Assembly (NCBI RefSeq): GCF_031085175.1
Contig: NZ_JAVHUY010000009.1
Location: forward strand, 62,001-126,000
Source: Phytohabitans maris
Lineage (GTDB): Bacteria > Actinomycetota > Actinomycetes > Mycobacteriales > Micromonosporaceae
Direction: 5' to 3'
DNA length: 64,000 nt
Made by a program: the position numbers and the translations under genes
Shown here: positions 37,192 through 57,316 of the stretch, piece after piece
Layout: each line of letters starts with the position of its first letter
Position numbering within the stretch: position 1 is the first letter of the stretch
The notes under the pieces: generated by a model
Databases searched by the model: none
Seen by the model: the letters and a program-made list of their open reading frames with translations, nothing else
What the model was told of the DNA's origin: nothing

Positions 37192-37830
37192 TCACCGGGG
37201 CCGGGCGGCCAGGATCTTGGTGACCGAATGCGTGTGCGGCTCCGGCACGTCCGCGTGCGACGAGACGATCGTGACGTCTTCGACCCGCAGCAGCTCCCAG
37301 CCGGTGTACATGCGCAGGTACTCGTCGTGCGCGGGCAGCAGCCGGGGCGGATTGAGGTGCCGATCCAGCTGCTGCGCGCGGTCGTTGAACGAGCAGAGCA
37401 CGTGCACCCCGCCCGGCCGGGTCGCCGCCTGGAGGTTCCGGACGGTCCGCCGGGCCTGGTCCAGGCTGGAGTTCCAGTGCAGCACGCTGTCGCAGACCAC
37501 GACGTCGTACCCGCCGCCCGGGACGGCCCGCGAGACGTCCGCCGTTCCCCAGGTGATCCGCGGCTCGTCCGGCCAGAGCCGGCGGGCGTGCTCCAGGGCC
37601 AGTTCGGAGATGTCGACCGCGTCCACGGTCGCGCCGGCACGGGCCAGGAAGACCGTGTTGCGGCCCTCGCCGCAGCCGGCGTCGAGTGCCCGGGCGCCGT
37701 CCAGCGTGACGTGCCGCTCGAGCCCCGCCACGTACGGCTCCGGCTCGACGCCCCACAGGCACGGGGTCAGGGCGTACCCGTGGTCGCAGCCCCCGGCGTT
37801 GGCGGCCGGGTCGCTGATCGCGGTGGTCAT
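37192..37830 (-). CDS. SAM-dependent methyltransferase (class I)
   Basis: 212 aa from ATG 37830 with GAGGAGA upstream. Motif I ALDAGCGEGRNTVFLARAG and the acidic residue in VDAVDISE define the SAM site; YDVVVCDSVLHW is motif II. It belongs to the Methyltransf_25/11 type used for O-, N- or C-methylation of small molecules. It overlaps the MFS gene (ATGA) and precedes the C-T-C NRPS, so tailoring of the peptide or a precursor is likely. The acceptor is unknown. Confidence 0.85.
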   Translation of the reverse strand: MTTAISDPAANAGGCDHGYALTPCLWGVEPEPYVAGLERHVTLDGARALDAGCGEGRNTVFLARAGATVDAVDISELALEHARRLWPDEPRITWGTADVSRAVPGGGYDVVVCDSVLHWNSSLDQARRTVRNLQAATRPGGVHVLCSFNDRAQQLDRHLNPPRLLPAHDEYLRMYTGWELLRVEDVTIVSSHADVPEPHTHSVTKILAARPR

Positions 37831-42240: not shown

Positions 42241-43100
42241 CGCTCGCCCTTCCCCGCGGCGGCAAGGACCGCGGTCGTGTGTTCGGTGTCGGGGGCGGAC
42301 GCCAGGCGCCGGTGTCCGGCGGCCCGCCACAGCGCGGCCGGCTGGCCCCATCTGGTCGCCTCGGTCCCGGCCAGGCGGTAGTAGTGCTGGATCGCGGCGT
42401 CGCCGGTGAGTCCGTAGGTGCCGTGCAGGTGCAGCGCGCGCCGGGTGACGCCGGTGGCCGCCTCGGCGGCGGCGGCGAGGGCCTGGATCGCGGCCAGGTC
42501 CGGCTCGCCGTCGGCCGGCGGCCAGGCGCGCGGCTGCGCAGCCGCCGAGTCCGGGCTGCCGGCGGCGTCCCGGTCGGCCAGCCAGGCGGCGTACGCGGTG
42601 AGCAGCCGGACCTCCTCGATCCGGACCAGGTCGGCGGCGAGGGCGAAGCCGGTGGCCTGGAAGGCGGCGATCGGTCGGCCGAACTGGTGTCGCTCGCCGC
42701 TGCGCCGGACCGCCAGGTCGTGCGCGCCGGCCGCGAGACCGACGAGGTAGGCGGCCTGCCGGATCCGCGCGCGGACCAGCGCGCCACCGGCCGGGGGCGG
42801 CGCCGTGGCCGGTGGGCGAGCGCCCGCCGCGACCCCGGCCGCGGCGGCCGGGCCGGTCTCCGCGGCCAGGCACCCGGACCGGTACGTGTCGCACGCCGCG
42901 ACCCGTCCGAGCTCCTCGGCCACCACGACGCCGTAGCTCAGCCCGAGCCCGAGCCCGCCGGCGGCCGGCGCGATCTCCAGGCCGTGCAGACCCAGCCGGC
43001 CGAGCAGGTCGTGCACGTCGCCGCGGGGCGGTACGCCGCGCAGCGCCTGGCGCAGCGCCGCGCGCAGCTCGTCCTGCAGGGCGTCGGGCAGCGGCCTCAT
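42237..43100 (-). CDS. Short acyl-CoA dehydrogenase-like protein
   Basis: 287 aa, about 90 residues shorter than normal. The N-terminal helical part is reduced (GRLGLHGLEIAPAAGGLGLGLSYGVVVAEELGR) and the middle beta domain is nearly absent; the C-terminal helical domain is good (GERHQFGRPIAAFQATGFALAADL; LHGTYGLTGDAAIQHYYR). It directly follows a full-length acyl-CoA dehydrogenase gene with ATGA overlap. Paired unequal subunits are known in heteromeric acyl-CoA dehydrogenases of actinobacteria, so this may be the partner subunit. Substrate and flavin binding by this chain alone are doubtful. Confidence 0.75.
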   Translation of the reverse strand: MRPLPDALQDELRAALRQALRGVPPRGDVHDLLGRLGLHGLEIAPAAGGLGLGLSYGVVVAEELGRVAACDTYRSGCLAAETGPAAAAGVAAGARPPATAPPPAGGALVRARIRQAAYLVGLAAGAHDLAVRRSGERHQFGRPIAAFQATGFALAADLVRIEEVRLLTAYAAWLADRDAAGSPDSAAAQPRAWPPADGEPDLAAIQALAAAAEAATGVTRRALHLHGTYGLTGDAAIQHYYRLAGTEATRWGQPAALWRAAGHRRLASAPDTEHTTAVLAAAGKGER

Positions 43101-44224
43101 CGCGCGCTCCCGGACAGCGAGCCGGCGATCAGCTCGAGCATCACCTCGGAGACGCCGGCCGAGATGGTCAGGCCGGGCGCCTCCCGCCAGGCCGACTCGA
43201 GGCAGCGGGCGGGGCCGGTGGTCGGGGCGGTGGCCGCGCCGCGCAGGGCGGCACCCCACTCGGCCACCGCGGCGGCCGACTCGCTGGTGTGCAGCTTGGC
43301 CATCGCCGCGAACACCGGGTCGAAGCGGTCCTCCTCCAGCCGGGCCAGCGCGGCCCAGGCGAGCAGCCGGGCGGCGTCGGCGCTGGCGCCGTGGCGGCCC
43401 AGGTCGGCCAGGCTGTCGGCGGCGTCACCGGGGGTCAGCCCGCCGCGGGCGGTGTCGTACCAGCGGGCCGCCTTGAGCGCGTAGTCGAGCCCGGTGCGTT
43501 CCATGGCCAGCGCCGTGGTGAGCGCGGCCCAGCCGGCGCCGGGCGCACCGAGCACATCGGACTCCGGGACGAACACGGCGTCCAGGTCGACCCGGTGGAA
43601 ATGCTCGTCGGCGAGACTGGGTATCCGCGTCGCGCGGACGCCGGGCGCGTGCAGGTCGATCAGCACGAGGGTGATGCCGTCGTAGCGGGACGCGGGGTCG
43701 CCGGTGCGCACCGCGGCGAGCGCCACGTCGCAGAGGGCGGCCTTGAGGCTGTAGATCTTCGTACCGCTCACCCGGTAACCGCCCGGCACGGGCTCGGCCC
43801 GGGTGGTCAGCGCGGCCAGGTCGGACCCGGCCTCCGGCTCGGTGTAGAGCACGCAGGCGAACCGCTCCCCGCCCGCGAACCGGGGCAGCCAGCGTCGTTG
43901 CTGGTCCGCCGTGCCGATGGCGCGCAGCACCGACCCGACGATCTGGACGGTGTTGATGTGCAGGGTGTCCGGGACACCGGCGCGGGACAGCTCCTCGGCG
44001 ACCACGGCGACGCTCATCGGCCCGCCGTCGAGGCCGCCGAACTCGGCCGGCCAGTCGGGGGCGAGGACGCCTGCGGCGCCGATCGCCCGGTAGAGCGGGC
44101 GTTCGTCGGGTTCGCCGGCGCCGGCCGCCAGGTCGTCGATGGCGCGGCGGACGCCAGGCGTCGCCAGCACGGCGCGAACCCGGGCACGCAGCCGGCTCTG
44201 GTGCGAGTCGAATCCGAAGTCCAC
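43097..44224 (-). CDS. Acyl-CoA dehydrogenase
   Basis: 375 aa from GTG 44224 after AAGGAGGGG. FAD-binding motifs LYTEPEAGSDLAAL and GYRVSGTKIYSLKAALCDVAL and a C-terminal helical domain with TISAGVSEVMLELIAGS. In biosynthetic clusters such enzymes oxidise carrier- or CoA-bound acyl groups to alpha,beta-unsaturated ones. Introduction of a dehydro-amino acid or oxidation of a side chain is possible here; azinomycin-type azabicycles are attached to a dehydro unit. First gene of the minus operon, next to operator repeats. Confidence 0.85.
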   Translation of the reverse strand: MDFGFDSHQSRLRARVRAVLATPGVRRAIDDLAAGAGEPDERPLYRAIGAAGVLAPDWPAEFGGLDGGPMSVAVVAEELSRAGVPDTLHINTVQIVGSVLRAIGTADQQRRWLPRFAGGERFACVLYTEPEAGSDLAALTTRAEPVPGGYRVSGTKIYSLKAALCDVALAAVRTGDPASRYDGITLVLIDLHAPGVRATRIPSLADEHFHRVDLDAVFVPESDVLGAPGAGWAALTTALAMERTGLDYALKAARWYDTARGGLTPGDAADSLADLGRHGASADAARLLAWAALARLEEDRFDPVFAAMAKLHTSESAAAVAEWGAALRGAATAPTTGPARCLESAWREAPGLTISAGVSEVMLELIAGSLSGSAR

Positions 44225-44311: not shown

Positions 44312-46276
44312 GTGACTGTTGACAGCGAGCTGATGCGCCGGCTCAGCCGCATCCCGGCCGACCGGCGGACGAGCTTCCTCACCGGATTGCGGGCGGCCAT
44401 CGCCCCGCCCGCGCCGCTACCGGACGACATCGAGACCCTGATGCGCGAGTGGGCGCCCGGCGAGACCCCGCGCACGCCCCGCACCGTCACCGAGGTGTTC
44501 GCCGAAACGGCCGCCCGGCATCCCGGCCGGGTGGCGGTCGTCGACGGCTCCGGCCGCCGGACGTACGCCGACCTGGCCGCCGAGGTCGAGCGGTTGGCCG
44601 CCGCCCTGCACGCCCGTGGCGTGGACGCGGAGCGCCCGGTCGCGATCCTCACCGGACGCGGCGACGCACGGGCGGTCATCGGGATCCTGGCGGTGCTGCG
44701 GGCCGGCGGGTACTGGGTGCCGATCGACCCGGGCAATCCGGCCGAGCGCATCGCCGCCGTGCTGCGCGACGCCGATCCGGTCCTGGTCCTGGCCGACGCC
44801 GGCACCGAGCCGGCGCTGCCGCCGGACGGTCCGCCCGTGTTTCGCCTGGACCGGCCGTGGCCCGCCGCGCCCCCGCTCGCCGCCTCGCCCGGGCACCCGC
44901 ACCGGCTGGCGTACGCCATCTACACCTCGGGCAGCACCGGCGTGCCCAAGGCGGTGCAGCTCGAGCACGCCGGCGCGGTGCACTTCGTCGAGACCGTCCA
45001 GCGGATGTTCGAGCTCACGCCCGAGGACCGGCTCATCCAGTACGCGTCGCTGGGCTTCGACGTGTCGGTGTTCGAGATCTTCGCCGCCCTGCTGACCGGC
45101 GCCTCGCTGTACCTGCCCGGCGACGACGAGCGGCTGTCGGTGACCGCCCTGTCGGCCGCGCTGCGCCGGGAGCGGATCACCGTCGTGGACCTGCCACCGG
45201 CCATCCTGGACCTGCTCGACCCGGCCGGCTTTCCGGACCTGCGGGTGGCCTTCGTCGGCGGCGAGGCGTTCACCGGCGAGCTGACGACCCGGTGGGCGCG
45301 GCACTGCCGGTTCCTCAACGGGTACGGCCCGACCGAGTGCACGGTGACCGTGGTGGCCAAGGAGTGCACCGGTGAGTGGACCACCTCGCCGCCGATCGGT
45401 CGGGCGATGGACAACCACGTCGCGTACGCCCTGGACGAACGGCTGCGCCCGGTGCCGGTGGGTGAGCCGGGTGAGCTCTGCGTCGGCGGTCCCGGCCTGG
45501 CCCGCGGGTACGCCGGCCGGCCCGGCCTGACCGCCGACCGGTTCGTCCCGGACCCCTGGGCCCGCCACCCGGGCGACCGGCTGTACCGCACCGGTGACCT
45601 GTGCCGCTGGACCGCCGACGGCGACCTGGTCTTCCTCGGCCGCAACGACCGGCAGGTGCAGGTCCACGGGCACCGGGTGGAGCTGGGCGACGTCGAGTCG
45701 GCCCTGGTCCGCACCGACGGGGTACGGCAGGCCGTGGCCACCACCGAGGACAGCGGTCAGCTGGTCGCCTACGTCGTACCGGTCGCCGCGCCGGCCGACC
45801 TGGCCGCGATCCGCGCCCGGACGGCCGAGCTGGTCCCCCGGCACATGGTCCCGTCCCGGCTCGTCGAGGTGGACGCGATCCCGCTGACGGTGAACGGCAA
45901 GACCGACCTGGCCGCGCTGCGCCGGATCCGGCCGGCCGGCGGCGACGCCGGCGTGGCCGAGCTGACCCCGACCCAGCGGCGGTTGCGCGAGACGTGCCTG
46001 TCGCCGGTGCTCGGGACGGTCGCCGCCGGCCCGGACGACGACTTCTTCGAGCTGGGCGGGGACAGCATCCAGGCGATCCGGCTGCTGTCCCGGGTACGCG
46101 AGGAGTTCGGCGCCGAGATCGCGCTGGGCGACTTCCTCCGCGCGCCGACACTGGCCTGGCTCGCGGGCGCGGTCGAAACGGCCGCGCCGGCCGGGGCGGG
46201 CAGCGGCCTGGATGCCATCCTCGCCGGCCTGGCGGACCTGTCCGACGACGAGGTCGAGGCGATGCTCGCCGAGTGA
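44312..46276 (+). CDS. NRPS A-T protein
   Basis: 654 aa from GTG 44312 after GAGGAGGAG. Residues 1-60 form a helical N-terminal extension. Adenylation domain: IYTSGSTGVPKA, NGYGPTECT, YRTGDLC, VNGKTD (A10 with Lys). Carrier protein LGGDSIQAI (Ser near 584), then a helical tail ending LSDDEVEAMLAE, perhaps a docking element. The code read by hand is D-V-F-D-F-G-G-V-T-K, not matched to a known residue by me; Asp278 could pair with a polar or basic side chain. It is transcribed alone between two divergent or convergent operons. Confidence 0.88.
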   Translation: MTVDSELMRRLSRIPADRRTSFLTGLRAAIAPPAPLPDDIETLMREWAPGETPRTPRTVTEVFAETAARHPGRVAVVDGSGRRTYADLAAEVERLAAALHARGVDAERPVAILTGRGDARAVIGILAVLRAGGYWVPIDPGNPAERIAAVLRDADPVLVLADAGTEPALPPDGPPVFRLDRPWPAAPPLAASPGHPHRLAYAIYTSGSTGVPKAVQLEHAGAVHFVETVQRMFELTPEDRLIQYASLGFDVSVFEIFAALLTGASLYLPGDDERLSVTALSAALRRERITVVDLPPAILDLLDPAGFPDLRVAFVGGEAFTGELTTRWARHCRFLNGYGPTECTVTVVAKECTGEWTTSPPIGRAMDNHVAYALDERLRPVPVGEPGELCVGGPGLARGYAGRPGLTADRFVPDPWARHPGDRLYRTGDLCRWTADGDLVFLGRNDRQVQVHGHRVELGDVESALVRTDGVRQAVATTEDSGQLVAYVVPVAAPADLAAIRARTAELVPRHMVPSRLVEVDAIPLTVNGKTDLAALRRIRPAGGDAGVAELTPTQRRLRETCLSPVLGTVAAGPDDDFFELGGDSIQAIRLLSRVREEFGAEIALGDFLRAPTLAWLAGAVETAAPAGAGSGLDAILAGLADLSDDEVEAMLAE

Positions 46277-46333: not shown

Positions 46334-47377
46334 TCAGAGCGCGAGCGAGGTGAGGGCGCGCTCGACGACGGCGACGCCGCGCAGGAAGTCGTCGATGCGG
46401 ATGTGCTCGTCGTCGGTGTGGTCGAGCCGGCTGTCCCCCGGGCCGTACGTGGCCATCGGCACCGACCAGACCTCGCTCAGCGTGTTCATGTCCGAGGTGG
46501 CGGTCTTCACCTTGGCGCCCGGCTCCCCGCCCTCGGCCCGGATCGCACCGCTGAGCGCGCGCACCACCGGGTCTGCGCGCCGCACCCGGCAGGCCGGCAC
46601 CGCGCCCCGCACCGTCACGGTGGCCGCCGGGACCCGGGTGCGCACGGCGGCCACGCAGGCGTCCACGTCGAATCCCGGCGGGGTCCGGACGCTCATCTCG
46701 GCCTCGGCGTGCTCCGGGTCGCCGCGCAGCAGGGTCAGCGTCGCTGCCGGGTCGGCGAAGCTCCGGTGCGCCGACGCCGGGTCGGCCGGGTCGGCGCCGA
46801 TCTCGTCCAGCAACACCGCCCAGGCCCGGACGGCCAGCTCCACCGCCCGCGGGTACGGGGCGCTCGGGTGCGCTCCCGGGCAGTCGGCGCTGACCCGCAG
46901 GTCGAGCTTGCCCTTGTACCCCAGCACCACGTCGGACCAGCCGCTCGGCTCCCCGACGATCACGGCGTCCGGGCGGGGCAGGGTGTCCCGGACCGCCATC
47001 GCGCCGCGGGATCCCGGCGTTTCCTCCTCCACCGCACCGACCACGGTCAGCCGCCCCCGGAAGCCGGTGGCCCGCGCCGCCCCGCAGGTGAGCGCGGCCA
47101 TCGGCCCCTTGGCGTCCACCGCGCCCCGGCCGTGCACCGCGTCGGCGGTGACCCGCAGGGGCGGCCCGCCGGGCACCGTGTCGATGTGCCCGAGCAGCAG
47201 CACGGACGGCCCGGGACCGCGGTCCAGGACGCCGACCGCGTTGCCGGCCGCGTCCAGGTGCGCGGCGAACCCCAGCCGGCGCATGTGGCCGGCCAGGCAG
47301 GCGGCGACCTCGTGCTCCGCGTACGACGGCGAGGCGATCGCGACCAGGTCGGTCAGCAGGTCGACGGGCGAGGTCAT
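46334..47377 (-). CDS. lysK: LysK-like M20 metallopeptidase, releases product from LysW
   Basis: 347 aa. M20-family hydrolase with the di-metal site: GHIDTVPG (His, Asp), [10 protein letters not shown] (bridging Asp), EEETPGSRG (catalytic Glu and metal Glu), VGEPSG (metal Glu) and LDHTDDEHI (His). LysK cleaves the gamma-glutamyl bond between the carrier protein LysW and the finished amino acid. It is coupled to the LysZ-like gene (ATGA), at the end of the carrier-protein operon, matching the last step of the pathway. A general deacylase function is possible, but the context is strong. Confidence 0.88.
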
Positions 47378-48183
47378 CCGGCACCGACCAGTGTGCCGCC
47401 GCCGGCCAGCGCCGCGCGTACCGGCTCGGGACCGGACCCGGCGGCGACCACCACCCGCGGCACTCCGCCGGCCAGCGCCTCGCGCGCGGCGACCAGCTTC
47501 AGGGCCATGCCTCCGGCCGCGTACGCCGGCAGGGTGTCTGCGACGGTCACCGCGGGCAGCACCGAGCCCGGGTCGTCCGGGTCGGTCTGCACGCCCGGGG
47601 CGCCGGTGAGCAGCACCAGCGCGCGGGCCCCGAGTGTCGCCGCGATCGCCGCCGCGGCACGGTCGGCGTCCACGTTGACCGGTGCGCCGTCCTCGTCCGC
47701 GGCCGGCGGGGACACCACCGGCACCACGCCGGCGCCCAGCATCGCGAGCAGGACGGCCGGATCGGCGCGGTCGAGGCGACCGGCGTGCTGGTCGTGGACC
47801 ACCACCCGGCGACCGCCGGACACCGCCCGGACCGCGCGCTTGCGCCGGGCCCGCAGCAGACCGGCGTCCAGGCCGGTCAGCCCGGCCGCCGGCACCCCGT
47901 GCCGGGCCAGGCCGGCGACCAGCCGCGGCTTCACCATTCCGGCCAGGGCCAGGTGGACGACCTCCAGCGTCGCCGCGTCGGTGTAGCGGGTGGTCACGCC
48001 GTCCGGCGAGACCAGTTCCCGGCGCGGCACGCCCAGCCGGCCGGCGAGCCGGTCGATGTCGGCCGACCCGCCGTGGACGAGCACCACCGGGACGCCCGCG
48101 GCGTGCAGGGCGGCGATGTCGGCGCACACCGCGGCCGCGTCCACCGCGGCGTTGCCGCCGCACTTGACCACCACGACGTCCAT
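47374..48183 (-). CDS. lysZ: LysZ-like [LysW]-amino-acid kinase (ArgB family)
   Basis: 269 aa. Amino-acid kinase fold with VVKCGGNAA at the N-terminus (phosphate-binding Lys), [24 protein letters not shown] and LTGAPGVQ. It is expected to phosphorylate the side-chain carboxylate of the LysW-bound glutamate or aminoadipate. The family includes acetylglutamate kinase, but the neighbouring lysW, lysX and lysY assign it to the carrier-protein pathway. Nine bases separate it from the LysY-like gene. Confidence 0.88.
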
Positions 48184-48192
48184 ACCGGCCTC

Positions 48193-49221
48193 CTAGATCG
48201 GGTGCAGTCCGGTGAAGCCGAGGCCGGACTCCTCCGGCCAGCCCATCCGGATGTTCAGGCACTGCACGGCATTGCCGGCGCCGCCCTTGACCAGGTTGTC
48301 CAGGGCACCGACGGCGGTGACCCGCCCGTCGCCGCGGTCCACCGCCGGGCCGACGTCGCAGAAGTTCGAGCCGGCCAGGATCTTCGGGTCGGGCAGCCGG
48401 AACGCGCCGCGGCGCTGCGCCACGATCCGGACGAACGGCTCGGCCGCGTACGCCCGCCGGTACGCCTCACGCACCTCCCGCGGCCCGGCACCGTCGCGCA
48501 GCCGGGCCCGGCACAGCACCTGGACCCCGCGCACCGCCTCGACGCCGGTCGCGCTCATCCGGCAGGGATGCCCGGTGGCTTGCGCGATCTCGGCCTGGTG
48601 CCGGTGCCGCAGCGGCGCGAACACGCGCATCGCGCCACTGCGCTCGGCGTGCGCGTCGCCCGGCCCGCCGCCGGCACCGGACCCGCTGGAACCGGTCCGG
48701 GCGTCCACCGCGACCTCGCCGTCGATCAGCCCGTCGACGGCCAGCGGATGCACGGCGAGGATCGCCGCGGTGGCCATGCAGCCGGGCACGCTGATCCGGT
48801 CGGCGCCGGTCAGCCGGTCGCGGTACAGCTCGGGGATCCCGGGCGTGAACGACTCCAGCAGCTCCGGCGCGGTGTGCTCGACGCCGTAGTGCTCGCGGTA
48901 CACCAGCGGGTCGCGCAGCCGGAAGTCGCCGGAGAGGTCGAGCAGCACCTTGCCCCGGTCCAGCAGGCGGGGCACCAGGGCCATCGTCTCGGTGTGCGGT
49001 GCGGCCACGAAGAGCACGTCCGCGCCGCTCAGCGCCGCCGGATCGGTGAACGCCAGCCGGGTACGGCCGCGCAGGTTGGGGTGGGCCGTGTCGACCGGCC
49101 GCCCGGCCAGCCGCGCCGAGGTCACCGTGGTGAGCTCGATCTCCGGGTGGCCGAGCAGCAGCCGGACCAGTTCGCCGCCGATGTACCCGGAGCCGCCGAC
49201 CACCGCCGCGGTCGTGGTCAC
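48193..49221 (-). CDS. lysY: LysY-like [LysW]-acyl-phosphate reductase (ArgC family)
   Basis: 342 aa from GTG 49221 overlapping the LysX stop. NADPH-binding [22 protein letters not shown], catalytic Cys in [12 protein letters not shown] and general-base His in RHRHQAEI. It reduces the carrier-bound acyl phosphate to a semialdehyde. In the secondary pathway of vazabitide the product is LysW-bound glutamate semialdehyde, the acceptor for a transketolase; a split transketolase lies upstream in this operon. Confidence 0.88.
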
Positions 49222-50081
49222 GACGCACCTCCGACGATCCGGTCCACGATGGACGCGGCGATGTCGAGCCCGCCGTGCGCCGCTTGCAGCCCGGCGAACT
49301 CGACCCGGTGGTTGACCTCGAGCACCAGCACCGCGCCGGCCCGGTCCTCGACCAGGTCGACCCCGGCGATGTCGGCGCCGGTGGCCTCGGCGGCCCGGAC
49401 GGCCAGCTTTTCGGTGTCCGGGTCGAGCACGCACGGCTCGGCGCGACCGCCGCGGGAGACGTTGGTACGCCAGTCGTCGGCGTACCGGCGCATCGCCGCG
49501 ACCAGCTCGCCCCGGACCACCAGCGCGCGCAGGTCGTAACCGGGCTTGTCCACGTACTCCTGCAGATAGACGACCTGGGCCTGCGGCGATGGCTGGGCCC
49601 CGACGTGCTCCAGCACGGTGGCCGCCTCCTCGGCGTCACGGACCCGGGTGACGAGCCGTCCCCAGGACCCGACCAGCGGCTTGAGGACCACCGGGAAGCC
49701 CACCTCCGCGGCCGCCTCTTCGGCCGCGGCCGGCGAGGCGGCCAGGACGGTGCGCGGCGCCGGCAGACCCGCCCGGGCCAGCGCCAGGCTGGTCAGCCAC
49801 TTGTCGCCGCAGGTCTGCACGGCGGCGGCCGAGTTGACCACGGTCATCCCGGCCGCCTCCAGCATGGTGGCCGCGTAGCGGGCCCGGACCTGGCCGATCT
49901 CCCGGTTGAGCACGAGCCCACCCGGGCCGGCCGGGCCGGACGCCGCGCGGCGCAGCGCGTTGGTGTCCAGCACCTCCGCCGCGTGCCCGCCCCGCCGCAG
50001 GGCGGTCAGCAGGCCCTTCTCGTCCGGACCGACCCGGGAGGCCAGCACCAGCACCGGATCGCGACCACCGCGGGCGTTCAC
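49218..50081 (-). CDS. lysX: LysX-like ligase charging LysW (RimK-type ATP-grasp)
   Basis: 287 aa from GTG 50081, overlapping the lysW stop by four bases (GTGA). ATP-grasp features: GFPVVLKPLVGSWGRLV, VVYLQEYVDKPGYDLRALVV, RTNVSRGG and the metal-binding VLEVNHRVEFAG. LysX/ArgX forms an isopeptide bond between the C-terminal Glu of LysW and the alpha-amine of aminoadipate or glutamate. Glutamate is more likely here because a C2-transferring transketolase follows, but I cannot decide this from the sequence. Confidence 0.9.
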   Translation of the reverse strand: MNARGGRDPVLVLASRVGPDEKGLLTALRRGGHAAEVLDTNALRRAASGPAGPGGLVLNREIGQVRARYAATMLEAAGMTVVNSAAAVQTCGDKWLTSLALARAGLPAPRTVLAASPAAAEEAAAEVGFPVVLKPLVGSWGRLVTRVRDAEEAATVLEHVGAQPSPQAQVVYLQEYVDKPGYDLRALVVRGELVAAMRRYADDWRTNVSRGGRAEPCVLDPDTEKLAVRAAEATGADIAGVDLVEDRAGAVLVLEVNHRVEFAGLQAAHGGLDIAASIVDRIVGGAS

Positions 50082-50245
50082 TCTCCCCAGTCCTCGGCGA
50101 CCTCGGGTGCGAGGGCCACCAGCAGCGGCGCGGTGCTGACCACCTCGAGTTCGCCGCGGCACTCGGCGCACTCCAGGATTTCGTGCAGCACCGGTTCGGC
50201 CGGCGCGGTCACGGTCTCGAAGCATTCGGGGCAGGTGGTCGTCAC
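50078..50245 (-). CDS. lysW: LysW-like amino-group carrier protein
   Basis: 55 aa, easily missed because of its size. GTG start at 50245 with GAGGAGG upstream. Two zinc-binding CxxC pairs (TCPEC and CAEC), the core GELEVVSTAP and the invariant C-terminus EDWGE, whose last Glu is joined to the substrate's alpha-amine. The acidic surface guides LysX, LysZ and LysY. Presence of this gene between the synthases and the transketolase defines the operon as a carrier-protein pathway. Its stop overlaps the lysX start. Confidence 0.95.
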   Translation of the reverse strand: MTTTCPECFETVTAPAEPVLHEILECAECRGELEVVSTAPLLVALAPEVAEDWGE

Positions 50246-50289
50246 TTCGGTCCTCCTCGATTGTCGGTACGCGCGAAACTGTCAGAACG

Positions 50290-51267
50290 TCAGAACGTCG
50301 CGAACAGGGGCGAGTCGAGCCCGGGCCGCAGCGCCGAGCGGGCGGCGCGGGCGATCCCGGCCGCCGTGATCCCGACCGCGTCGAGCAGCTCCTCCTGGCT
50401 GCCGACCGCCGAGACGTACATGTCGCCGACGCCCATCCGGACCAGCCGCGGGCCCGGCCGGGAGGCCAGGAGCGCGGCCACCGCCGAGCCGAGGCCGCCC
50501 TCGCGCCAGTGCTCCTCGACGGTCACGACCGCCGCGCAGCCCCGGACGGCGCCCGCGATCGCCGCGCCGTCCAGCGGTTTCAGCGTGTGCACCTGGACCA
50601 CGCGCGCGCTCACGCCGTCGGCCGCGGCCAGCACCTCGGCCGCGGCCAGCGCCCGCAGCGTCGGCAGCGGGCCGCAGGCCAGCAGGCAGACCTCGGTCCC
50701 GTCACGCCGCACCCGCGGCACGCCGATCCGGGGTGGTGGCGCCGGCGGCAGGTCCGGAGTCGGCTTGCGGCCGAGCCGCAGATAGACCGGACCGTCGCGA
50801 TCGTGCGCCTGGTCGAGCAGGGCCACGGTGTCGGCCGCGTCGCCGGGGACCAGAACCGTCATCGCCGGCATCGCGCGCATGACCGCCAGATCCTCCAGCG
50901 CGTGGTGGGTCGGCCCGAGATGACCGGCGGCCAGGCCGCCGTGGGTCGCCGCGATCCGGACCGGGAGCCGGTTGTACGCGATGTCGATCTTCACCGTCTC
51001 GGCGGCGCGGCACGCGGCGAACGCGGCCATCGTGTTCACGTACGGCAGCCACCCGTCGTGGGCCAGTCCGGCCGCCACCCCGAACAGGTTCTGCTCGGCG
51101 ATGCCCAGGTCCAGGTAGCGGTCCGCGGCCGGGCCGAAGTCGGCGCCGGTGAACAGGCCGGTGTCGGAGTCCAGGCAGATCACCCGGGGGTCGTCCCGCA
51201 TCCGGGCGATCAGCCAGTCGCGGTACGCGTGCCGGGTGGCGACCGGCGCCGCGACCGGGGCGGTCAC
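50290..51267 (-). CDS. Transketolase C-terminal subunit
   Basis: 325 aa from GTG 51267, overlapping the N-terminal subunit. Pyrimidine-binding and C-terminal domains of transketolase: RYLDLGIAEQNLFGVAAGLA (catalytic Glu activating thiamine diphosphate), THHALEDLAVMRAMPAMTVLVP and EEHWREGGLG. It pairs with the subunit at 51264-52133. In amino-group-carrier pathways a split transketolase moves a two-carbon ketol unit onto the LysW-bound semialdehyde. Confidence 0.9.
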   Translation of the reverse strand: MTAPVAAPVATRHAYRDWLIARMRDDPRVICLDSDTGLFTGADFGPAADRYLDLGIAEQNLFGVAAGLAHDGWLPYVNTMAAFAACRAAETVKIDIAYNRLPVRIAATHGGLAAGHLGPTHHALEDLAVMRAMPAMTVLVPGDAADTVALLDQAHDRDGPVYLRLGRKPTPDLPPAPPPRIGVPRVRRDGTEVCLLACGPLPTLRALAAAEVLAAADGVSARVVQVHTLKPLDGAAIAGAVRGCAAVVTVEEHWREGGLGSAVAALLASRPGPRLVRMGVGDMYVSAVGSQEELLDAVGITAAGIARAARSALRPGLDSPLFATF

Positions 51268-52133
51268 GACGCCTTCCGGAGGCTGAGGTCCCGATGGGCG
51301 CGGGCGGCGACCCGGGCCGGCAGGGTGGTGTAGTGAGCGTCGATCCGGTTCTCCGCGGCCGGTACGCCGTTGCCCTTCACCGTCCGGGCGATCACGACGC
51401 CGGGCCGGCCCGCGGTCCACGGGGCGGTGCCCAGAGCCGCGCGCAGCTCGCCGTGGTCGTGCCCGTCCACCTCCCGGACGTCCCAGCCGAAGCCGCGGAA
51501 GCGCTCGCCCAGCGGCTCCATCGGGCAGACCCGCTCGGTCGGCGACCCCAGCTGCAGGCCGTTGCGGTCGACCACGGCGACCAGGTGGTCCGCCCGGGTC
51601 GAGGCAGCCGCCATCACCGACTCCCAGCACGAGCCCTCCTGCAGTTCGCCGTCGCCGAGCAGGACGTAGGTGCGCCGCCGCGGCCCGAACCGGCCCGCCT
51701 CGCGCATCCGCGCGGACAGGGCCAGGCCCAGGCCGAGGGCGAGCCCGTGGCCCAGGGATCCGGTCGGCAGCTCCACACCGGGGACCGCCCGGGTCGGATG
51801 GCCGAGCAGCCGGCTGCCCCGCCGGCCGTACCCGGCCAGCTCCGCGGGGTCCAGGAAACCGCGCTCGGCCAGGGTGGCGTACAGGGCGATGGCCGCGTGC
51901 CCCTTGCTCAGCAGGAAGATGTCGCGCCCGGGGTCGTGCGGCCGCTCCGGGTCGACCCGCAGGACGTCGAAGTACAGCACGCTCAGGATGTCCACACAGG
52001 ACAGCGAGCCGCCGAGATGGCCGCCCTCGGCGCCGGCGCACATGTCAACGACGTGGTGCCGGATCCGGGCGGCGGCCGCCTCGACCTCGGTCGCGGTGGT
52101 GCGGCCGGCGGCTGGTACGGCGAGGACGGTCAT
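51264..52133 (-). CDS. Transketolase N-terminal subunit
   Basis: 289 aa. It binds the diphosphate of thiamine diphosphate through [15 protein letters not shown] and [40 protein letters not shown] and [16 protein letters not shown] are further transketolase blocks. A complete transketolase is two chains here. Coupled by ATGA to the aminotransferase gene and to its partner subunit, so a role in making the diamino-dihydroxyheptanoate-like amino acid is inferred. Confidence 0.9.
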
Positions 52134-53473
52134 CGTGCCCTCGCCATGCTCGCCACGGTCGGCAGGTTCGCCCAGACCTTCTCGAACGCGTCCGCGTACC
52201 GCTCCAGCGCCGGTCCGGCGTCCGGGTGCAGGTGCCGCTTCTGCAGGGTCAGCGAGTCGTCGATCACCGCGCTGGTGACCGGGGTCGGCGGGGTGGGCGC
52301 CGGCGCGGCGTACGACCAGGGCACGCCACCGCCGAAGCCGACGCGGTCGGTGAAGACGGGCTGCTCGGGGAGCGGCCGGATCTGGTATCGCGACATGGGC
52401 ACTCCTTCGGCCTGCAGCAGGCGGTGTACGGCCCGGCGCAGGGCACCGGGGGTGACGCCGGGCAGGCCGGCGGCCGCCGGGTCGAGCCGGAACCGCAGGA
52501 TGTGCCAGGCGTGGGTGCTGCCGGGCACGACACCCGGCGGGATCAGCCCTGGCAGCGACCGCAACCGGTCGAGGAAGGCGGCCACGTGGCGTTGCCGGGC
52601 CGCCTCGTACGCCGGGAACCGGTCGAGCTGGGACAGCGTGAACGCGGCCTGGACGGAGCTCATCTTGTGGTTCCAGCCGAGCCGGTGGGACAGGTAGTCG
52701 CGGTCGCGGCCGGGCTCGATCACCTCGCCGAACTGCCGGACCGTGCGGGCCCGCGCGCCCACCGCGGCGTCGGTGAAGGTGACCAGGCCACCCTCTCCGC
52801 AGGTGGGCAGGTTCTTCGTCACCTGCAGGCTGAACGAGCCGGCGTCGCCCAGCTGCCCGACCGGCCGGCCACGCCAGGTGGCGGCGTGGGCCTGCGCGGC
52901 GTCCTCCACCACGGCGAGGCCGTGCCGGGCGGCCAGCGCGCCCAGCCGGTCCATGTCGGCCGGCTGGCCGTGCAGGTGAACCGGAAGGATCGCGGCGGTC
53001 CGCGGGGTGATCGCCGCCGCGACGGAGTCCGGGTCCAGCGTGAAGCTGACCGGGTCGATGTCGGCGAAGACCGGCACCGCGAGCTGGTGCAGCGGCGCGA
53101 GGGCGGACGCGACGAAGCTGAGCGCCGGCACCACCACCTCGTCGCCCGGCCCGATGCCGAGCGCGGCCAGGGCGAGGGACAGGGCGGTCGTGCCGTTCGA
53201 CACGGCGACACAGGCGGGCGTGCCGCAGAGCTCGGCCCAGCGGTTCTCCAGCCGGCTGACCGCGGTCTCGCCGTCCGCGTTGGAGACCAGATGGTCGTCC
53301 AGCACGGCGGTGACGGCGGCCCGGTCGGCGTCGGTGATCACCGGCCAGGGCAGGTTGCGCAGCGCCCGGGGCACGGCCGGGGCGCCGCCGAAGGCGGCGA
53401 GCACCTCCGCGGCACGCCGGCGGACCGGAACGGACGGGGCGGTCACGGTGAGCTCCTTCGCGGTCGTGGTCAT
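52130..53473 (-). CDS. DegT-family aminotransferase of the carrier-protein operon
   Basis: 447 aa. Hallmarks: [34 protein letters not shown] with PLP-binding Asp, and Schiff-base Lys in [15 protein letters not shown]. It lies directly after the gene for the 335-aa protein (ATGA overlap) and before the transketolase genes. It is expected to convert the 6-keto group made by the transketolase into the 6-amine of a 2,6-diamino acid. The C-terminal segment is longer than in most sugar aminotransferases, as might suit a protein-bound substrate. Confidence 0.88.
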
Positions 53474-54477
53474 CGGAGGTCGGCGGCGGCACGGCCGAGG
53501 GCGGCGTGCGCCTCCTGGTACGCCCGCCGCAGGCTGCCGAGGTGGTCCCGCAGCGGGCCGGCGCAGGCGGCCGGGTCGGCGCGGCCGTGCGCGGCCGTCA
53601 CCCGGACCGCGGTCCAGCGGTGCGCCACCTGCTCGACCCGGCGACCGGCCTCGGCCAGGGCGGGCCGGTCCCAGCGGGCGCCGAGCGTGCGCAGCAGCTC
53701 GCCGTGCAAGGCCGCCTGGGCCTGCATGCCCCAGCCGAACGTGTACGCCTCGGCGAGCAGCTCCGGGGTGGCCGCCGTGCCCATCCGCGCGCAGTACCGG
53801 CGGAGCCCCTCGGCGCCGGTCCAGACGTCGCCGGAGAGCGCGGCGAACCCGGCGGCGTTGACGTCCAGGGCGAGTCCCAGGCGACCCGGGTCGAGGGCCG
53901 GGATCGCGGCCGGCAGGCGGACGTCGAGCCAGCGGCCGCCGCTCGTGACCGGGCCGCTGAAGAAGACGTCCTGCTCGTCGTCCACCCCGGCGGCGCCGCA
54001 GCTGCGCAGCAGCACCTCGGCGGGTAGCGGGCCGGCGAAGCTCGGGGGCATGGCGTCGGACACCGCCACGGTGCCGGCCGTCCCGTCCACGTCGTACACC
54101 ACCAGGAGATGGGCGGCGTGCACGTCGCGGTACGCGGGCCGGAACGGCAGGTGGTAGTTGTCGACCGCGACCACCGGTAGCCGCCCCGCGGCGAGCGCGT
54201 CGCGCCACTCACCGAGCGGGTCGGCCGGGTCGATCGCCCGCCAGCGCGAGGTGACCTCGTGCAGCGGCAGCAGGCTCCCGGCCAGGTCGCCGGGGCGGCG
54301 GCAGGGCCAGTAGTACTCCTCCGGCCGCACGTCGCCGGGGTGATACCGGAACTCCCAGCTCAGCCCGAGCACCTCGACCGGGTCGTGGCCCGCCTCCAGC
54401 AGCAGGGTGGCCAGCGTGGACTGCAGGCAGCTGACCGGGTCGCGGTACCACTGGGCTACGCCCCGAACGCAGGTCAT
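53470..54477 (-). CDS. Unknown protein with BtrH/cysteine-peptidase-like N-terminus; aziridine-forming candidate
   Basis: 335 aa. N-terminal half resembles the BtrH_N/C39-like fold: Cys17 in [12 protein letters not shown], His123 in [13 protein letters not shown] and Asp129 close by, which could form a transfer triad. The C-terminal half is all-helical with many Ala and Arg. I do not recognise a closer family. It overlaps the aminotransferase gene and the 190-aa gene at both ends and follows the sulfotransferase gene. In the azinomycin and vazabitide clusters two adjacent proteins of new fold (AziU3/U2, Vzb10/11) close the aziridine by sulfate elimination; this pair has the right position, but I cannot confirm homology. 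Confidence 0.55.
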
Positions 54478-55046
54478 GCCGCGTTCACCTCGTCCCGGGA
54501 CGGGCACAAGGTGGCCGCGAAGACGTGCAGCGCGACGTTGTGCGGCAGGCGCAACCGGCGCAGCTCGGCCCGGCGGGTCACCGGCACGCGCTGGTACCAG
54601 ATGTGCGCGGTGACCCCGGGCTGGACGTGCCGCGGGTAGTGCATGGCCGACGTGGCGACGGCCTCGTCCTCACCGAACACCGCCGAGGCGGCCCAGAAGT
54701 CGGAGACGCGCACCGTCTCGAAGTCCACGCTGCCGTCGGCGAAGTGCAGGGCCACCTCGTCCTCGACCCGCCGCTCCCCCGCGGCGAGCAGGCAGCACCA
54801 GTCGTACCGGCCGGGCGGGACCGTCACGAGCTGCCCCTCGCAGCGCACGTTGTCGGGCCGGCCGGGTCCGGCGGCGGGGAAAGCGAAGCGGACGCCGCCG
54901 ATATCGACCGGGCGGCCCAAGGGCAGCTCCTCGCCGGGCAGCGAGTTGCGCCAGACGTTGAACCGGCCGCCGCCGGTGTCGCCGGCCTGGGTGATGCCGG
55001 CGTTGTTGAGGTGTGCCGCCAGCTCGATCGGGACCTGCTCCCGCAT
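54474..55046 (-). CDS. Unknown beta-rich protein, partner of the preceding gene
   Basis: 190 aa from ATG 55046 with AAAGGAG upstream. The middle part reads GGVRFAFPAAGPGRPDNV, CEGQLVTVPPGRYDW, EVALHFADGS and VRVSDFW, a pattern of a beta-sandwich domain also seen in some glycosidase accessory modules. No catalytic site is evident. It overlaps the 335-aa gene by ATGA, so the two proteins may form a complex made in equal amounts. It could be the small subunit of an AziU3/U2-like aziridine-forming enzyme; this is inferred from position only. Confidence 0.5.
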   Translation of the reverse strand: MREQVPIELAAHLNNAGITQAGDTGGGRFNVWRNSLPGEELPLGRPVDIGGVRFAFPAAGPGRPDNVRCEGQLVTVPPGRYDWCCLLAAGERRVEDEVALHFADGSVDFETVRVSDFWAASAVFGEDEAVATSAMHYPRHVQPGVTAHIWYQRVPVTRRAELRRLRLPHNVALHVFAATLCPSRDEVNAA

Positions 55047-55119
55047 CGGAGGTGCTCCTTTCCAGGACGTGGCGTCCGCGCCGGTCAGGCGACCAGGGCC
55101 GGTGAGGGTTGCTTCGGTC

Positions 55120-55872
55120 TCAACGGACACCGCCGCTCCTCCCGACGGCGATCCGCCGGTCCCGCAGCCGCTGGTAGAACGGCCGGTGATGGGCGTCGAA
55201 GGCGGCGAGCACGGGATGGTTGGCCACGGTGTCCGGATACTCGGCGGCTACGGGGCGGAAGCCGTCGGTGGCGCCGGTGCGCACGTGCCACCGGCGGGTG
55301 CGCTGCCACTGCGGCAGCAGACCCGGTGACCAGGACAGCGCGTCCGGCCGGAAGTCCCAGCCGACGGCGGCGCAGACCGCCGCCACGGTGGCCGGCGGAT
55401 CGGTGACGAGGTCGTCGGAGTCGACCACCACGGCCGCGCCGCCCGCGGCCGTGACCGCGTCGTGGATCTCGGCAAGTCGCTCGAACCCGACCTCCGGGCT
55501 GGTCAGCCGCGGGTTGAGGGCGAAGTGCGAGGCGATGGCGGCCGCCGGGTCACGGATGAGGAAGACGTGGCTGACCCGGCGCAGGAAACCGCGGTCGGCC
55601 AGCAGACCCGGGTAGCGGAAGTCGGTGGTGTCCTTGAAGAAGACGGGTCGGTCCGCCGCCAGCCGTTCGATCCGCGCGACCAGCTCGGCCTCGCTGCGCA
55701 CGGTGTGCCCGGCCACGGCGTACTCCCCGAAGTCGGTGAGCTGCGAGAACGGCTCGTGCAACACCACGTGATCGCCACGCTCGGTGATCATGCGCAGGAA
55801 GGCGGTCGATCGTGACCGCGGGGCGCTCCACAGCGCCACCACGGATGGACGACTCCCGACGCTCCCGGACAT
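55120..55872 (-). CDS. PAPS-dependent sulfotransferase
   Basis: 250 aa from ATG 55872 with GAGGAGG upstream. The 5'-phosphosulfate-binding loop is at residues 15-25 (WSAPRSRSTAF), and VFLIRDPAAAIASHF is the 3'-phosphate-binding motif. LHEPFS after the first helix is typical of a bacterial sulfotransferase subgroup. In aziridine biosynthesis the hydroxyl next to the future ring nitrogen is sulfated to become a leaving group; a sulfotransferase first in the LysW operon fits that. Direct sulfation of the final peptide is the alternative. Confidence 0.85.
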   Translation of the reverse strand: MSGSVGSRPSVVALWSAPRSRSTAFLRMITERGDHVVLHEPFSQLTDFGEYAVAGHTVRSEAELVARIERLAADRPVFFKDTTDFRYPGLLADRGFLRRVSHVFLIRDPAAAIASHFALNPRLTSPEVGFERLAEIHDAVTAAGGAAVVVDSDDLVTDPPATVAAVCAAVGWDFRPDALSWSPGLLPQWQRTRRWHVRTGATDGFRPVAAEYPDTVANHPVLAAFDAHHRPFYQRLRDRRIAVGRSGGVR

Positions 55873-56035: not shown

Positions 56036-57316
56036 ATGAAAGACCTCGTGATGGGTCAACCGGAGTTTGGTAACCGTCTGCGCAGCCGCCGCATCGAGCT
56101 GGGTCTGTCGCAGAAGGCCCTGGCCGGCGACAACATGACGCCCAGCTACATCTCGCTGCTGGAGAACGGCAGCCGGGTGCCCAGCCTCGAGGTCGTGATC
56201 CGGCTGGCCCGCCTGCTCGACGTCACCCCTCAGGAGTTGCTCGGCCATGAGGTGGAGGGCCTCGGCGGCGGCCGCGGCAGGGAGCCTTCCGAGCTCGTCG
56301 CCCAGGTCGAGATGCGCCGTCTCTCCGAGATGGGCGACCTCGCCGGGGCCCGCAAGCTGATCGAGGAAAAGCTCGCCGGCGCGCGCCGCACCGGCAACGA
56401 CGAGGCGGGCCTGGCGTACGGCATCGAGCTGCTCAAGGTCCTGACCGACCAGGGCGACCAGGAGAAGCGGCTCGCCCTGGTCGACGAGCTGCGGCGGTTC
56501 CCCAGTGTGGACCGCTCCCCCGCCATCCAGGTCGTGCTGGCCGCGCACAACGCGTCGATCCTGCGCGAGATGGGCCGGCTCGCCAGCGCGCACAAGGCCG
56601 CCCAGGAGGCGGTGGAGCTGGTCAGCGAGGGTGAGCTGAGCGGCAGCAGCGAGCACGTCCAGCTGCTCGGCATCCTCGCCTCGATCGAGGTCGAGACCAA
56701 CGCCTTCGACGCCGCCGAGCGCACGATCGAGGAGATGATCCGGCTTGCGAACGACGGCGGGTACGCCGGCGTCCTCGGCCGGACGCACTGGATCGCCAGC
56801 ATGGCCTACTCCCGCATGGGCCGCCCGGCCCCGGCGTACGAGCACCTGCTGGCCGCACACCAGACCCTGGTCTTCGGCACCATGACCCTGCACGACTGGC
56901 TCCGGTTCTCCCGGTTCACCGCGTCGGTCCTGCTGGAGGGCGGGCACGACGTCGAAAAGGCCCGCGACTGGATCGACTCGGCCGAGCTGAACGCGCGCCT
57001 GGCCGGGCTCGAGCCGGACCGGCTGGCGGCGCAGCGCGAGCGCGCGCACTACGAGCTCACCGCCGGCAACCCGGCCGAGGCGGCCAGGCTCTACACCGAG
57101 CTGCTCGACCGGCCCCAGCAGGTCAACAGCAGCGAGACGGTGATCGCGCTCGCCGGGCTGAGCGACGCGCTGCAGCGGGTCGGCCGCATCGACGAAGCCA
57201 TCGAGTGGCAGCGCAAGGCGGCGGAGCGCTACGAGGCGGACGGCAACTACCGCCGGGCTGCCGAGTCCTGGCGCAAGATCGACGCCCTGCGCCAGCAGGC
57301 CGCCGCCCGGGGCTGA
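56036..57316 (+). CDS. HTH (XRE-type) regulator with TPR-like domain, second copy
   Basis: 426 aa. XRE helix-turn-helix at residues about 10-65 (LSQKALAGDNMTPSYISLLENGSRVPS), then a long alpha-helical repeat domain (AQVEMRRLSEMGDLAGARKLIEEKL). Architecture and HTH are shared with the regulator at 11458, but sequence is divergent and I saw no TTA codons. ATG 56036 is used; ATG 56051 is an alternative and no strong ribosome binding site is seen. It marks the right end of the cluster. The pair of regulators and the common operator motif suggest shared control of all cluster operons. Confidence 0.82.
   Translation: MKDLVMGQPEFGNRLRSRRIELGLSQKALAGDNMTPSYISLLENGSRVPSLEVVIRLARLLDVTPQELLGHEVEGLGGGRGREPSELVAQVEMRRLSEMGDLAGARKLIEEKLAGARRTGNDEAGLAYGIELLKVLTDQGDQEKRLALVDELRRFPSVDRSPAIQVVLAAHNASILREMGRLASAHKAAQEAVELVSEGELSGSSEHVQLLGILASIEVETNAFDAAERTIEEMIRLANDGGYAGVLGRTHWIASMAYSRMGRPAPAYEHLLAAHQTLVFGTMTLHDWLRFSRFTASVLLEGGHDVEKARDWIDSAELNARLAGLEPDRLAAQRERAHYELTAGNPAEAARLYTELLDRPQQVNSSETVIALAGLSDALQRVGRIDEAIEWQRKAAERYEADGNYRRAAESWRKIDALRQQAAARG

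What the first reader, a model, noticed from the sequence alone, without database searches (positions are those of the whole stretch)
46334..55872. LysW carrier-protein pathway inside an NRPS cluster, predicting a diamino-dihydroxyheptanoate-like building block
One minus-strand operon encodes LysW (55 aa, ending EDWGE), LysX, LysY, LysZ and LysK homologues together with a split transketolase, an aminotransferase and a sulfotransferase. The same set is known from Streptomyces clusters such as vazabitide, where glutamate on LysW is reduced, extended by two carbons and aminated. Primary lysine or arginine pathways do not need transketolase or sulfotransferase, so a secondary role is strongly implied. 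The combination with Hpg genes and a mostly stand-alone A-T NRPS set is one I do not recognise.
Basis: partly seen in the sequence, partly recalled or inferred. Interest (0 to 1): 0.92.

Follow-up and report, generated by a model that had tools for sequence, protein, structure and literature searches.

The report
Aziridine peptide gene cluster with hydroxyphenylglycine
This stretch of an actinobacterial genome encodes what looks like the full, already known recipe for a DNA-attacking aziridine ring built on a tiny carrier protein, joined to a peptide-making gene set and DNA-repair genes in a combination that I met in only one other genome, so the product is probably a new DNA-damaging peptide.

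Summary
In detail: a minus-strand operon (46334-55842) encodes LysW, LysX, LysY, LysZ, LysK, a split transketolase, a DegT aminotransferase and a sulfotransferase. The aminotransferase is nearest to Fic25, and two acyl-CoA-dehydrogenase-like genes (42237-44224) both hit ficellomycin's Fic32-33 complex. So diamino-dihydroxyheptanoate is probably an intermediate on the way to an NRPS-bound 1-azabicyclo[3.1.0]hexane, a DNA alkylator. An AlkZ-like glycosylase and a second endonuclease III fit self-protection. The genome has separate argC and argB genes. The whole 36-gene island (11458-57316) recurs colinear in Plantactinospora mayteni at 88-98% identity with different flanks, and looks horizontally transferred. 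The A-T protein 44312-46276 has a pocket code (DVFDFGGVT) identical in 35 A domains from 33 of 67 AziU3 loci: probably the dedicated loader. HmaS beside AziU3 was found only here and in P. mayteni; four other AziU3 loci have an HpgT-like aminotransferase. A same-genus sister cluster shares the NRPS scaffold without the aziridine genes. Known chemistry in a new setting; product unknown.

The parts
46334..47377 (-). LysK homologue, releases the amino acid from LysW
   Evidence: NF003367 1.8e-99 (below its cut-off) and TIGR01902 over cut-off
47374..48183 (-). LysZ homologue, LysW-glutamate/aminoadipate kinase
   Evidence: NF010659 over cut-off; 41% to the genome's own argB-like gene on C61
48193..49221 (-). 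LysY/ArgC homologue, reductase to the semialdehyde
   Evidence: TIGR01850 over cut-off; separate argC on C61
49218..50054 (-). LysX homologue, ligates the amino acid to LysW
   Evidence: LysX_arch 1.8e-78 (just under cut-off), RimK ATP-grasp
50078..50245 (-). LysW amino-group carrier protein, 55 aa, C-terminus EDWGE
   Evidence: PF21344 over cut-off; TIGR01206 50.7 bits, cut-off 53.2; dN 0 against P. mayteni
50290..51267 (-). transketolase, pyrimidine-binding and C-terminal half
   Evidence: PF02779, PF02780
51264..52133 (-). transketolase, ThDP-binding N-terminal half
   Evidence: PF00456
52130..53473 (-). DegT aminotransferase, Fic25-like, makes (LysW-)DADH
   Evidence: PDB 8gyh 3e-180; Foldseek top six chains all Fic25, 65-66% identity
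53470..54477 (-). AziU3 homologue, aziridine synthase subunit
   Evidence: PDB AziU3 7wuw/7wux and Azi29 8gs1, E 2e-73, 47% identity; keeps 37 of 38 positions conserved at 97% or more in 67 relatives
54474..55046 (-). AziU2 homologue, aziridine synthase subunit
   Evidence: PDB AziU2 7wuw and Azi28 8gs1, E 1e-47
55120..55842 (-). sulfotransferase, presumed to sulfate the 7-hydroxyl of DADH
   Evidence: Sulfotransfer_5 2.7e-15; homologue within the flanks of 52 of 67 AziU3 loci; no PDB relative at E 0.1
44312..46276 (+). A-T protein, presumed loader of the aziridine/DADH-type amino acid (pocket DVFDFGGVT)
   Evidence: code identical in 35 A domains of 33 AziU3 loci
43097..44224 (-). flavin oxidase subunit, Fic32-33 type
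   Evidence: PDB 8hk0 chain A 2.8e-108; Foldseek 53% identity, TM 0.91
42237..43100 (-). second flavin oxidase subunit, Fic32-33 type, shorter than its relative
   Evidence: PDB 8hk0 chain C 4.9e-32
41470..42240 (-). type II thioesterase
   Evidence: PF00975, GYSMG
40186..41460 (-). second DegT aminotransferase, role unknown
   Evidence: PF01041; shared with sister cluster in G002, 49%
39161..40189 (-). ATP-grasp protein, role unknown, rare
   Evidence: weak ATP-grasp matches; found in 4 of 250 family genomes
37827..39137 (-). MFS exporter
   Evidence: PF07690
37192..37830 (-). methyltransferase
   Evidence: PF13649
33883..37179 (-). NRPS C-T-C
   Evidence: two condensation stretches and one carrier domain, no A domain
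32799..33827 (+). DAHP synthase (shikimate supply)
   Evidence: PF00793, NF006421
30962..32794 (+). NRPS A-T, atypical pocket without Asp235
30207..30965 (+). thioesterase-like protein (GxSxG pattern not found)
   Evidence: PF00975
28957..30210 (+). cytochrome P450
   Evidence: PF00067, haem motif
27188..28960 (+). NRPS A-T, valine-type pocket DALWLGGTF
   Evidence: substrate recalled
26836..27051 (-). MbtH protein
   Evidence: PF03621
25682..26797 (-). AlkZ-like DNA glycosylase, H-A-Q motif, presumed self-resistance
   Evidence: PDB AlkZ 5uuj 2.9e-60, only hit; motif
22470..25658 (-). NRPS C-A-T, pocket DVLHLGSIF (Hpg-like or Ser-like)
   Evidence: substrates recalled
18523..22311 (-). NRPS C-A-T-TE, pocket DIEDVGSIA
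17800..18522 (-). HAD hydrolase
   Evidence: PF00702
16946..17803 (-). orotidine-5'-phosphate decarboxylase type, role unknown
   Evidence: TIGR02127 over cut-off
16197..16949 (-). endonuclease III, second copy, presumed partner of the AlkZ-like enzyme
   Evidence: TIGR01083 5.7e-62, 208.8 bits, cut-off 211.7; other copy on C10, 52%, open over the part aligned
13777..16149 (+). Hmo-HpgT fusion (hydroxymandelate oxidase + aminotransferase)
   Evidence: FMN_dh + Aminotran_1_2
12738..13775 (+). HmaS, 4-hydroxymandelate synthase (told from dioxygenase by similarity only)
   Evidence: best 3zgj and PCZA361.1 (2r5v); one search names it 4HPPD, the related dioxygenase
11458..12741 (+). XRE-type regulator, left border of the conserved island
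56036..57316 (+). XRE/TPR regulator, right border of the conserved island

Best explanation
The operon is the aziridine cassette of a secondary-metabolite NRPS cluster. LysX attaches glutamate (or a close analogue) to LysW; LysZ phosphorylates and LysY reduces the side chain to an aldehyde; the two-part transketolase adds two carbons; the Fic25-like aminotransferase makes LysW-bound diamino-dihydroxyheptanoate; LysK frees it; the sulfotransferase sulfates the terminal hydroxyl; AziU2/AziU3 expel the sulfate to close the aziridine. The A-T protein 44312-46276 loads the amino acid, and the Fic32-33-type flavin pair oxidises it on the carrier to close 1-azabicyclo[3.1.0]hexane. The NRPS joins it to a valine-type unit, probably hydroxyphenylglycine, and others, giving a DNA-alkylating peptide; the AlkZ-like glycosylase and second endonuclease III protect the producer. 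Homologies, island limits and the shared pocket code are shown here; every reaction, its order, the monomers and DNA damage are inferred from characterised relatives.
For: AziU3 and AziU2 homologues; the window's AziU3 keeps 37 of the 38 positions conserved at 97% or more among 67 relatives. Aminotransferase nearest Fic25, solved with a DADH adduct. Both ACAD-like genes hit the two chains of 8hk0, the Fic32-33 complex. Pathway order from PMC9570651 (section 3.3) and the AziU3/U2 legend in PMC11168924. Pocket code shared by 35 A domains in 33 of 67 AziU3 loci, pairwise identity 40% at least, 59% median. AlkZ as sole PDB hit (E up to 0.001) with H-A-Q motif, which PMC9040887 gives as an AZL signature. 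Separate argC/argB. Colinear island in P. mayteni under purifying selection.
Against: No product or expression data. The second oxidase subunit is 287 aa against 380 in 8hk0 chain C and matches mainly its C-terminal half. The pocket code also occurs in G184, where LysW, LysX-LysK, transketolase, aminotransferase and sulfotransferase homologues stand without a found AziU2/AziU3, so it may mark the DADH skeleton rather than the aziridine. 14 of 51 AziU3 loci with A domains lack the code and its one-letter variant. The genome holds several other HTH_42 proteins, and AlkZ lies within the flanks of only 4 of 67 AziU3 loci. Hpg as a monomer rests on HmaS/Hmo/HpgT: NCBIfam calls the HmaS a dioxygenase, its best PDB hit is labelled a dioxygenase, and no A domain has the textbook Hpg code (recalled).
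Confidence: 0.85

Rival explanations
1. The cassette stops at the diamino-dihydroxy (or sulfated) amino acid; AziU2/AziU3 are inactive or do something else, and the product is not an alkylator.
For: G184 carries the pathway genes, sulfotransferase and the same A-domain code with no AziU2/U3 found, so a route ending there may exist.
Against: AziU2 and AziU3 are open and under purifying selection, AziU3 keeps 37 of 38 conserved positions, the Fic32-33-type pair is present and an AlkZ-like enzyme is in the island.
Confidence: 0.08
2. The LysW set serves primary lysine or arginine synthesis.
For: LysW, X, Y, Z, K are the names of a primary pathway.
Against: Separate argC and argB genes lie near each other on contig 61; the operon holds transketolase, sulfotransferase and AziU genes and lies in an NRPS island; AziU3 has no match in the five same-genus genomes searched.
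Confidence: 0.02
3. The aziridine cassette is genuine but the hydroxyphenylglycine and NRPS genes belong to a second, merely adjacent cluster.
For: A same-genus genome, G002, has a related NRPS cluster without the cassette.
Against: All 36 genes are colinear in two genomes put in different genera, with common borders; the cassette's A-T protein and flavin pair lie among the NRPS genes.
Confidence: 0.1

Closest known systems
Ficellomycin (fic) cluster, Streptomyces ficellus
   Same: Fic25-like aminotransferase and Fic32-33-like flavin pair; azabicycle known from the literature (recalled)
   Different: No Hpg genes known there (recalled); the fic sequence itself was not compared as a cluster
Azinomycin (azi) cluster, Streptomyces sahachiroi
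   Same: AziU2/AziU3 aziridine synthase, split transketolase, AlkZ-type glycosylase plus an endonuclease for self-resistance
   Different: Azinomycin has a naphthoate polyketide start and an N-acetyltransferase in the review's route; here no PKS domain was found in the 36 genes and LysW is present
Vazabitide A (vzb) cluster and amino-group carrier protein pathway
   Same: LysW-borne conversion of glutamate to DADH (review passage)
   Different: Hpg, P450, ATP-grasp and AlkZ-type genes; vzb sequence not compared here
AlkZ-like (AZL) self-resistance glycosylases
   Same: (Q/H)-aliphatic-Q motif and place inside a cluster
   Different: Substrate unknown; only moderately like AlkZ in sequence

Membership tests
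LysW amino-group carrier pathway to DADH | LysW with C-terminal EDWGE beside LysX, LysY, LysZ, LysK | tested here: met
   some models score just under curated cut-offs
LysW amino-group carrier pathway to DADH | two-part transketolase and Fic25-type aminotransferase | tested here: met
LysW amino-group carrier pathway to DADH | LysX accepts glutamate rather than aminoadipate | not testable with these tools
   needs enzyme assay
AziU2/AziU3 aziridine synthase | both subunits, homologous over most of their length | tested here: met
AziU2/AziU3 aziridine synthase | sulfate elimination from O-sulfo-DADH | not testable with these tools
   needs enzyme assay
1-azabicyclo[3.1.0]hexane oxidase (Fic32-33 type) | heteromeric pair of acyl-CoA-dehydrogenase-like subunits | tested here: inconclusive
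   large subunit met; small one is shorter and matches partly
AlkZ-like (AZL) glycosylase | (Q/H)-aliphatic-Q motif and location in a biosynthetic cluster | tested here: met
4-hydroxyphenylglycine supply | HmaS, Hmo, HpgT | tested here: inconclusive
   homologues of all three present, but HmaS is told from 4-hydroxyphenylpyruvate dioxygenase only by similarity and by my recall of what 3zgj and 2r5v are
Primary arginine/lysine biosynthesis | only copy of argB/argC-type genes in the genome | tested here: not met

The most novel reading that the evidence does not exclude
The island makes a new class of DNA-crosslinking or alkylating peptide in which an azabicyclic aziridine is carried by a hydroxyphenylglycine-containing NRPS backbone with a second reactive unit made from carrier-bound valine by the P450; the aziridine cassette was plugged into an older NRPS scaffold that in sister clusters carries a different warhead, and DVFDFGGVT is the general adenylation code for the LysW-derived amino acid.
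Probability: 0.25. Interest if true: 0.75.

Novelty: new variant of a known kind. Interest (0 to 1): 0.55.

Why it matters
Aziridines are uncommon in bioactive natural products (abstract of PMC12559475). A bounded, conserved, apparently functional cluster with a likely built-in resistance gene is a concrete lead to a new DNA-alkylating peptide. The pocket code shared across diverged aziridine clusters gives a sequence marker for where the LysW-derived amino acid enters an NRPS line, and the sister cluster lets one ask how a warhead cassette is exchanged on a common scaffold.

Tried and rejected
Primary lysine/arginine role: rejected; the lysine diaminopimelate route was not looked for. AlkZ copy number as evidence: dropped, since the genome has several HTH_42 proteins. 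HmaS beside other AziU3 loci: one search took 50 genomes (own plus those of 49 of the 67 AziU3 loci; 18 loci not checked). Stronger HmaS-type matches (44% or more) occur in a number of the others, but apart from the own genome and P. mayteni I could place none in the AziU3 neighbourhood; this was judged from contig numbers, lengths and coordinates, not from fetched sequence. Within the up-to-10-kb flanks HmaS is 0 of 67 (P. mayteni's lies about 40 kb away and so is not counted there). Against uniqueness of the Hpg part: in four AziU3 loci (L007, L012, L024, L029) a protein matches the HpgT half of the fusion at 44-48% over more than 400 residues, without HmaS in their flanks. The ATP-grasp gene was searched in 394 class genomes (1 hit, own) and 250 family genomes (4 hits) without showing its role; in the 40 kb of G011 read, the ATP-grasp/DegT pair stands without the NRPS genes. 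A first automatic reading of A-domain codes misplaced positions and was replaced by alignment columns. A first count of conserved AziU3 positions was circular and was replaced. Sulfotransferase: no PDB relative. Literature: one search lists 3 papers with hydroxyphenylglycine and aziridine, none on such a cluster by title and abstract start; of 23 papers, 20 were listed and none of these holds the word hydroxyphenylglycine. Only open-licence papers are held; Kurosawa 2022, Hasebe 2016 and Cheng 2023 were seen only as references.


Full report
What is there. One has only a general family (BtrH_N), the other none. Against solved structures they are AziU3 (7wuw/8gs1, E 2e-73) and AziU2 (E 1e-47), the complex described in the AlphaFold 3 paper's legend as bound to (5S,6S)-O7-sulfo DADH (PMC11168924, passages) and in a review as functionally an aziridine synthase (PMC12559475, passage). 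The window's AziU3 keeps 37 of 38 positions that are conserved at 97% or more among 67 relatives.

The pathway. PMC9570651 (section 3.3 read) gives the route for azinomycin: N-acetylation of glutamate, kinase, reductase, two-part transketolase, aminotransferase to DADH, sulfation, attack of the neighbouring amine to give the aziridine; it adds that LysW-type carriage may come first, as in vazabitide. The window has a homologue for each of the later steps and LysW/LysX for the first. The aminotransferase's best structure is Fic25, one entry of which holds a (5S,6S)-N2-acetyl-DADH adduct. The two acyl-CoA-dehydrogenase-like genes at 42237-44224 hit the two chains of 8hk0, titled Fic32-33 complex from Streptomyces ficellus (search made with a predicted model of the larger subunit, mean pLDDT 84). 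[quoted passage not shown] I take Fic32-33 to be that oxidase. The sulfotransferase shows stretches like the PAPS-binding motifs (recalled; sequence) and has no solved relative.

How common is the cassette. A scan of one genome per species found 65 AziU3 loci; with two (which may repeat named species) 67 loci; a third, weak match was left out. Within flanks of at most 10 kb, AziU2 is near 66 of 67, the aminotransferase 55, sulfotransferase 52, LysX 52, transketolase N-half 48, LysK 47, LysW 44, large oxidase 36, AlkZ 4, HmaS 0; flanks are cut at some contig ends, so these are lower bounds. In 250 family genomes AziU3 occurs in 18. So this cassette beside NRPS genes is a known and not very rare kind.

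The loader. Nine pocket positions read from aligned columns are DVFDFGGVT in the A-T protein 44312-46276. Of 76 A domains found in 51 AziU3 loci (by likeness to the window's five A domains), 35 in 33 loci have exactly this code and 7 in 4 loci DVFDFGGVA; 14 loci with A domains lack both. Pairwise identity among the exact ones goes down to 40% (median 59%), so identity of the pocket is not mere overall likeness. As an outside check, the nine of 250 family genomes with a match at E up to 1e-150 (few candidates per genome are scored) were read: seven have AziU3 and the code; G002 has no AziU3 and a different code (DVFMSGGVE); G184 has no AziU3 at E 1e-15 but has the code (and a second A domain DVGDFGGVT) together with LysW, LysX-LysK, transketolase, aminotransferase and sulfotransferase homologues. 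The other 11 AziU3 genomes were not read for the code. The code therefore seems to follow the LysW-derived amino acid, perhaps whether or not the aziridine is closed.

The rest of the line. Other pockets: 27188-28960 DALWLGGTF (valine-type, recalled), followed by a P450; 22470-25658 DVLHLGSIF (between Hpg and Ser codes, recalled); 18523-22311 DIEDVGSIA (basic residue suspected, recalled); 30962-32794 lacks Asp235. The HmaS candidate's best solved relatives are 3zgj (labelled 4-hydroxyphenylpyruvic acid dioxygenase; I recall it as an S. coelicolor HmaS) and PCZA361.1 (2r5v; recalled as HmaS), ahead of 1t47 and the other dioxygenases, while NCBIfam names it 4HPPD; the genome has another, dioxygenase-like gene at 38%. 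With the Hmo-HpgT fusion beside it, Hpg supply is likely but not proven. Azinomycin's epoxide comes from valine (PMC9570651), which makes the valine/P450 pair a candidate second electrophile; this is speculation.

Hpg beside the aziridine genes. HmaS in the AziU3 neighbourhood was found only in the window and P. mayteni, among 50 genomes searched, judged from contig coordinates. Four other AziU3 loci have an aminotransferase 44-48% like the HpgT half, so parts of an Hpg-like route may be more widespread.

Self-resistance. 25682-26797 has AlkZ as its only solved relative and carries H-A-Q, fitting the (Q/H)-aliphatic-Q motif that PMC9040887 (passages) gives for AZL proteins; that paper places 5 of 68 cluster-borne AZL genes in ficellomycin/vazabitide A-type clusters. 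An endonuclease III gene at 16197-16949 has a second copy on contig 10 (the tool counts a TAG in that match, but the 226 residues aligned are open). PMC9570651 names a glycosylase and an endonuclease for azinomycin self-protection. The genome has further HTH_42 proteins, so position in the cluster, not presence, is the argument.

Borders and descent. The island 11458-57316, 36 genes from one XRE regulator to another, is colinear in Plantactinospora mayteni at 88-98% protein identity, while none of the genes called on either side has a counterpart in the 95 kb of that contig searched, bar one 32% match. P. mayteni has two further genes, a GMC oxidoreductase and a class III aminotransferase, between AziU2 and the sulfotransferase. 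Synonymous distance is 0.056-0.219 in the island but 0.616 in the housekeeping argC (80% protein identity): one control gene, but it points to horizontal transfer. The genome with P. mayteni's coordinates (G153) is put in another genus than the window's.

A sister without the warhead. G002, same genus, has a cluster with methyltransferase, P450s, A-T, orotidylate decarboxylase, ATP-grasp, second DegT, MbtH, an A-T like the loader, C-T-C and the atypical A-T (36-62% identity), and no LysW, transketolase or AziU match; a distant HTH_42 match (26%) lies near. The aziridine cassette therefore looks like an exchangeable part.

Verdict. Known chemistry (aziridine via LysW and AziU2/U3), a complete-looking cassette, in a combination with HmaS seen otherwise only in P. 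mayteni among the genomes checked. New variant of a known kind; the product is unknown.

Noticed in passing
L104:8910-11773 (P. mayteni): A GMC oxidoreductase and a class III aminotransferase sit between AziU2 and the sulfotransferase in P. mayteni; the window has 73 bp there.
   Followed up: partly
L144 (G184:C18:112000-131500): LysW, LysX-LysK, transketolase, aminotransferase, sulfotransferase and the same A-domain code with no AziU2/AziU3 found: perhaps a route that stops before the aziridine.
   Followed up: partly
L143 (G002:C2:388000-407000) and neighbours: Sister NRPS cluster in the same genus with radical SAM and glutamine-amidotransferase-like genes and no aziridine cassette.
   Followed up: partly
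L007, L012, L024, L029: Aminotransferase 44-48% like the HpgT half of the window's fusion near AziU3 in four other genomes, without HmaS in the flanks.
   Followed up: no
16946-18522: An orotidine-5'-phosphate decarboxylase and a HAD hydrolase inside the island; a decarboxylase homologue (48%) is also in the sister cluster. Role unexplained.
   Followed up: no
39161-41460: Rare ATP-grasp protein with a second DegT aminotransferase; in G011 the pair stands without NRPS genes in the 40 kb read.
   Followed up: partly
G000:C61:29519-30577: A second HmaS-like gene (45%) elsewhere in the genome, suggesting another Hpg-type cluster.
   Followed up: no
33883-37179: The second condensation domain did not match my HHxxxDG-like pattern, and 22470-25658 and 18523-22311 have altered ends of it; possibly unusual condensation domains.
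   Followed up: no
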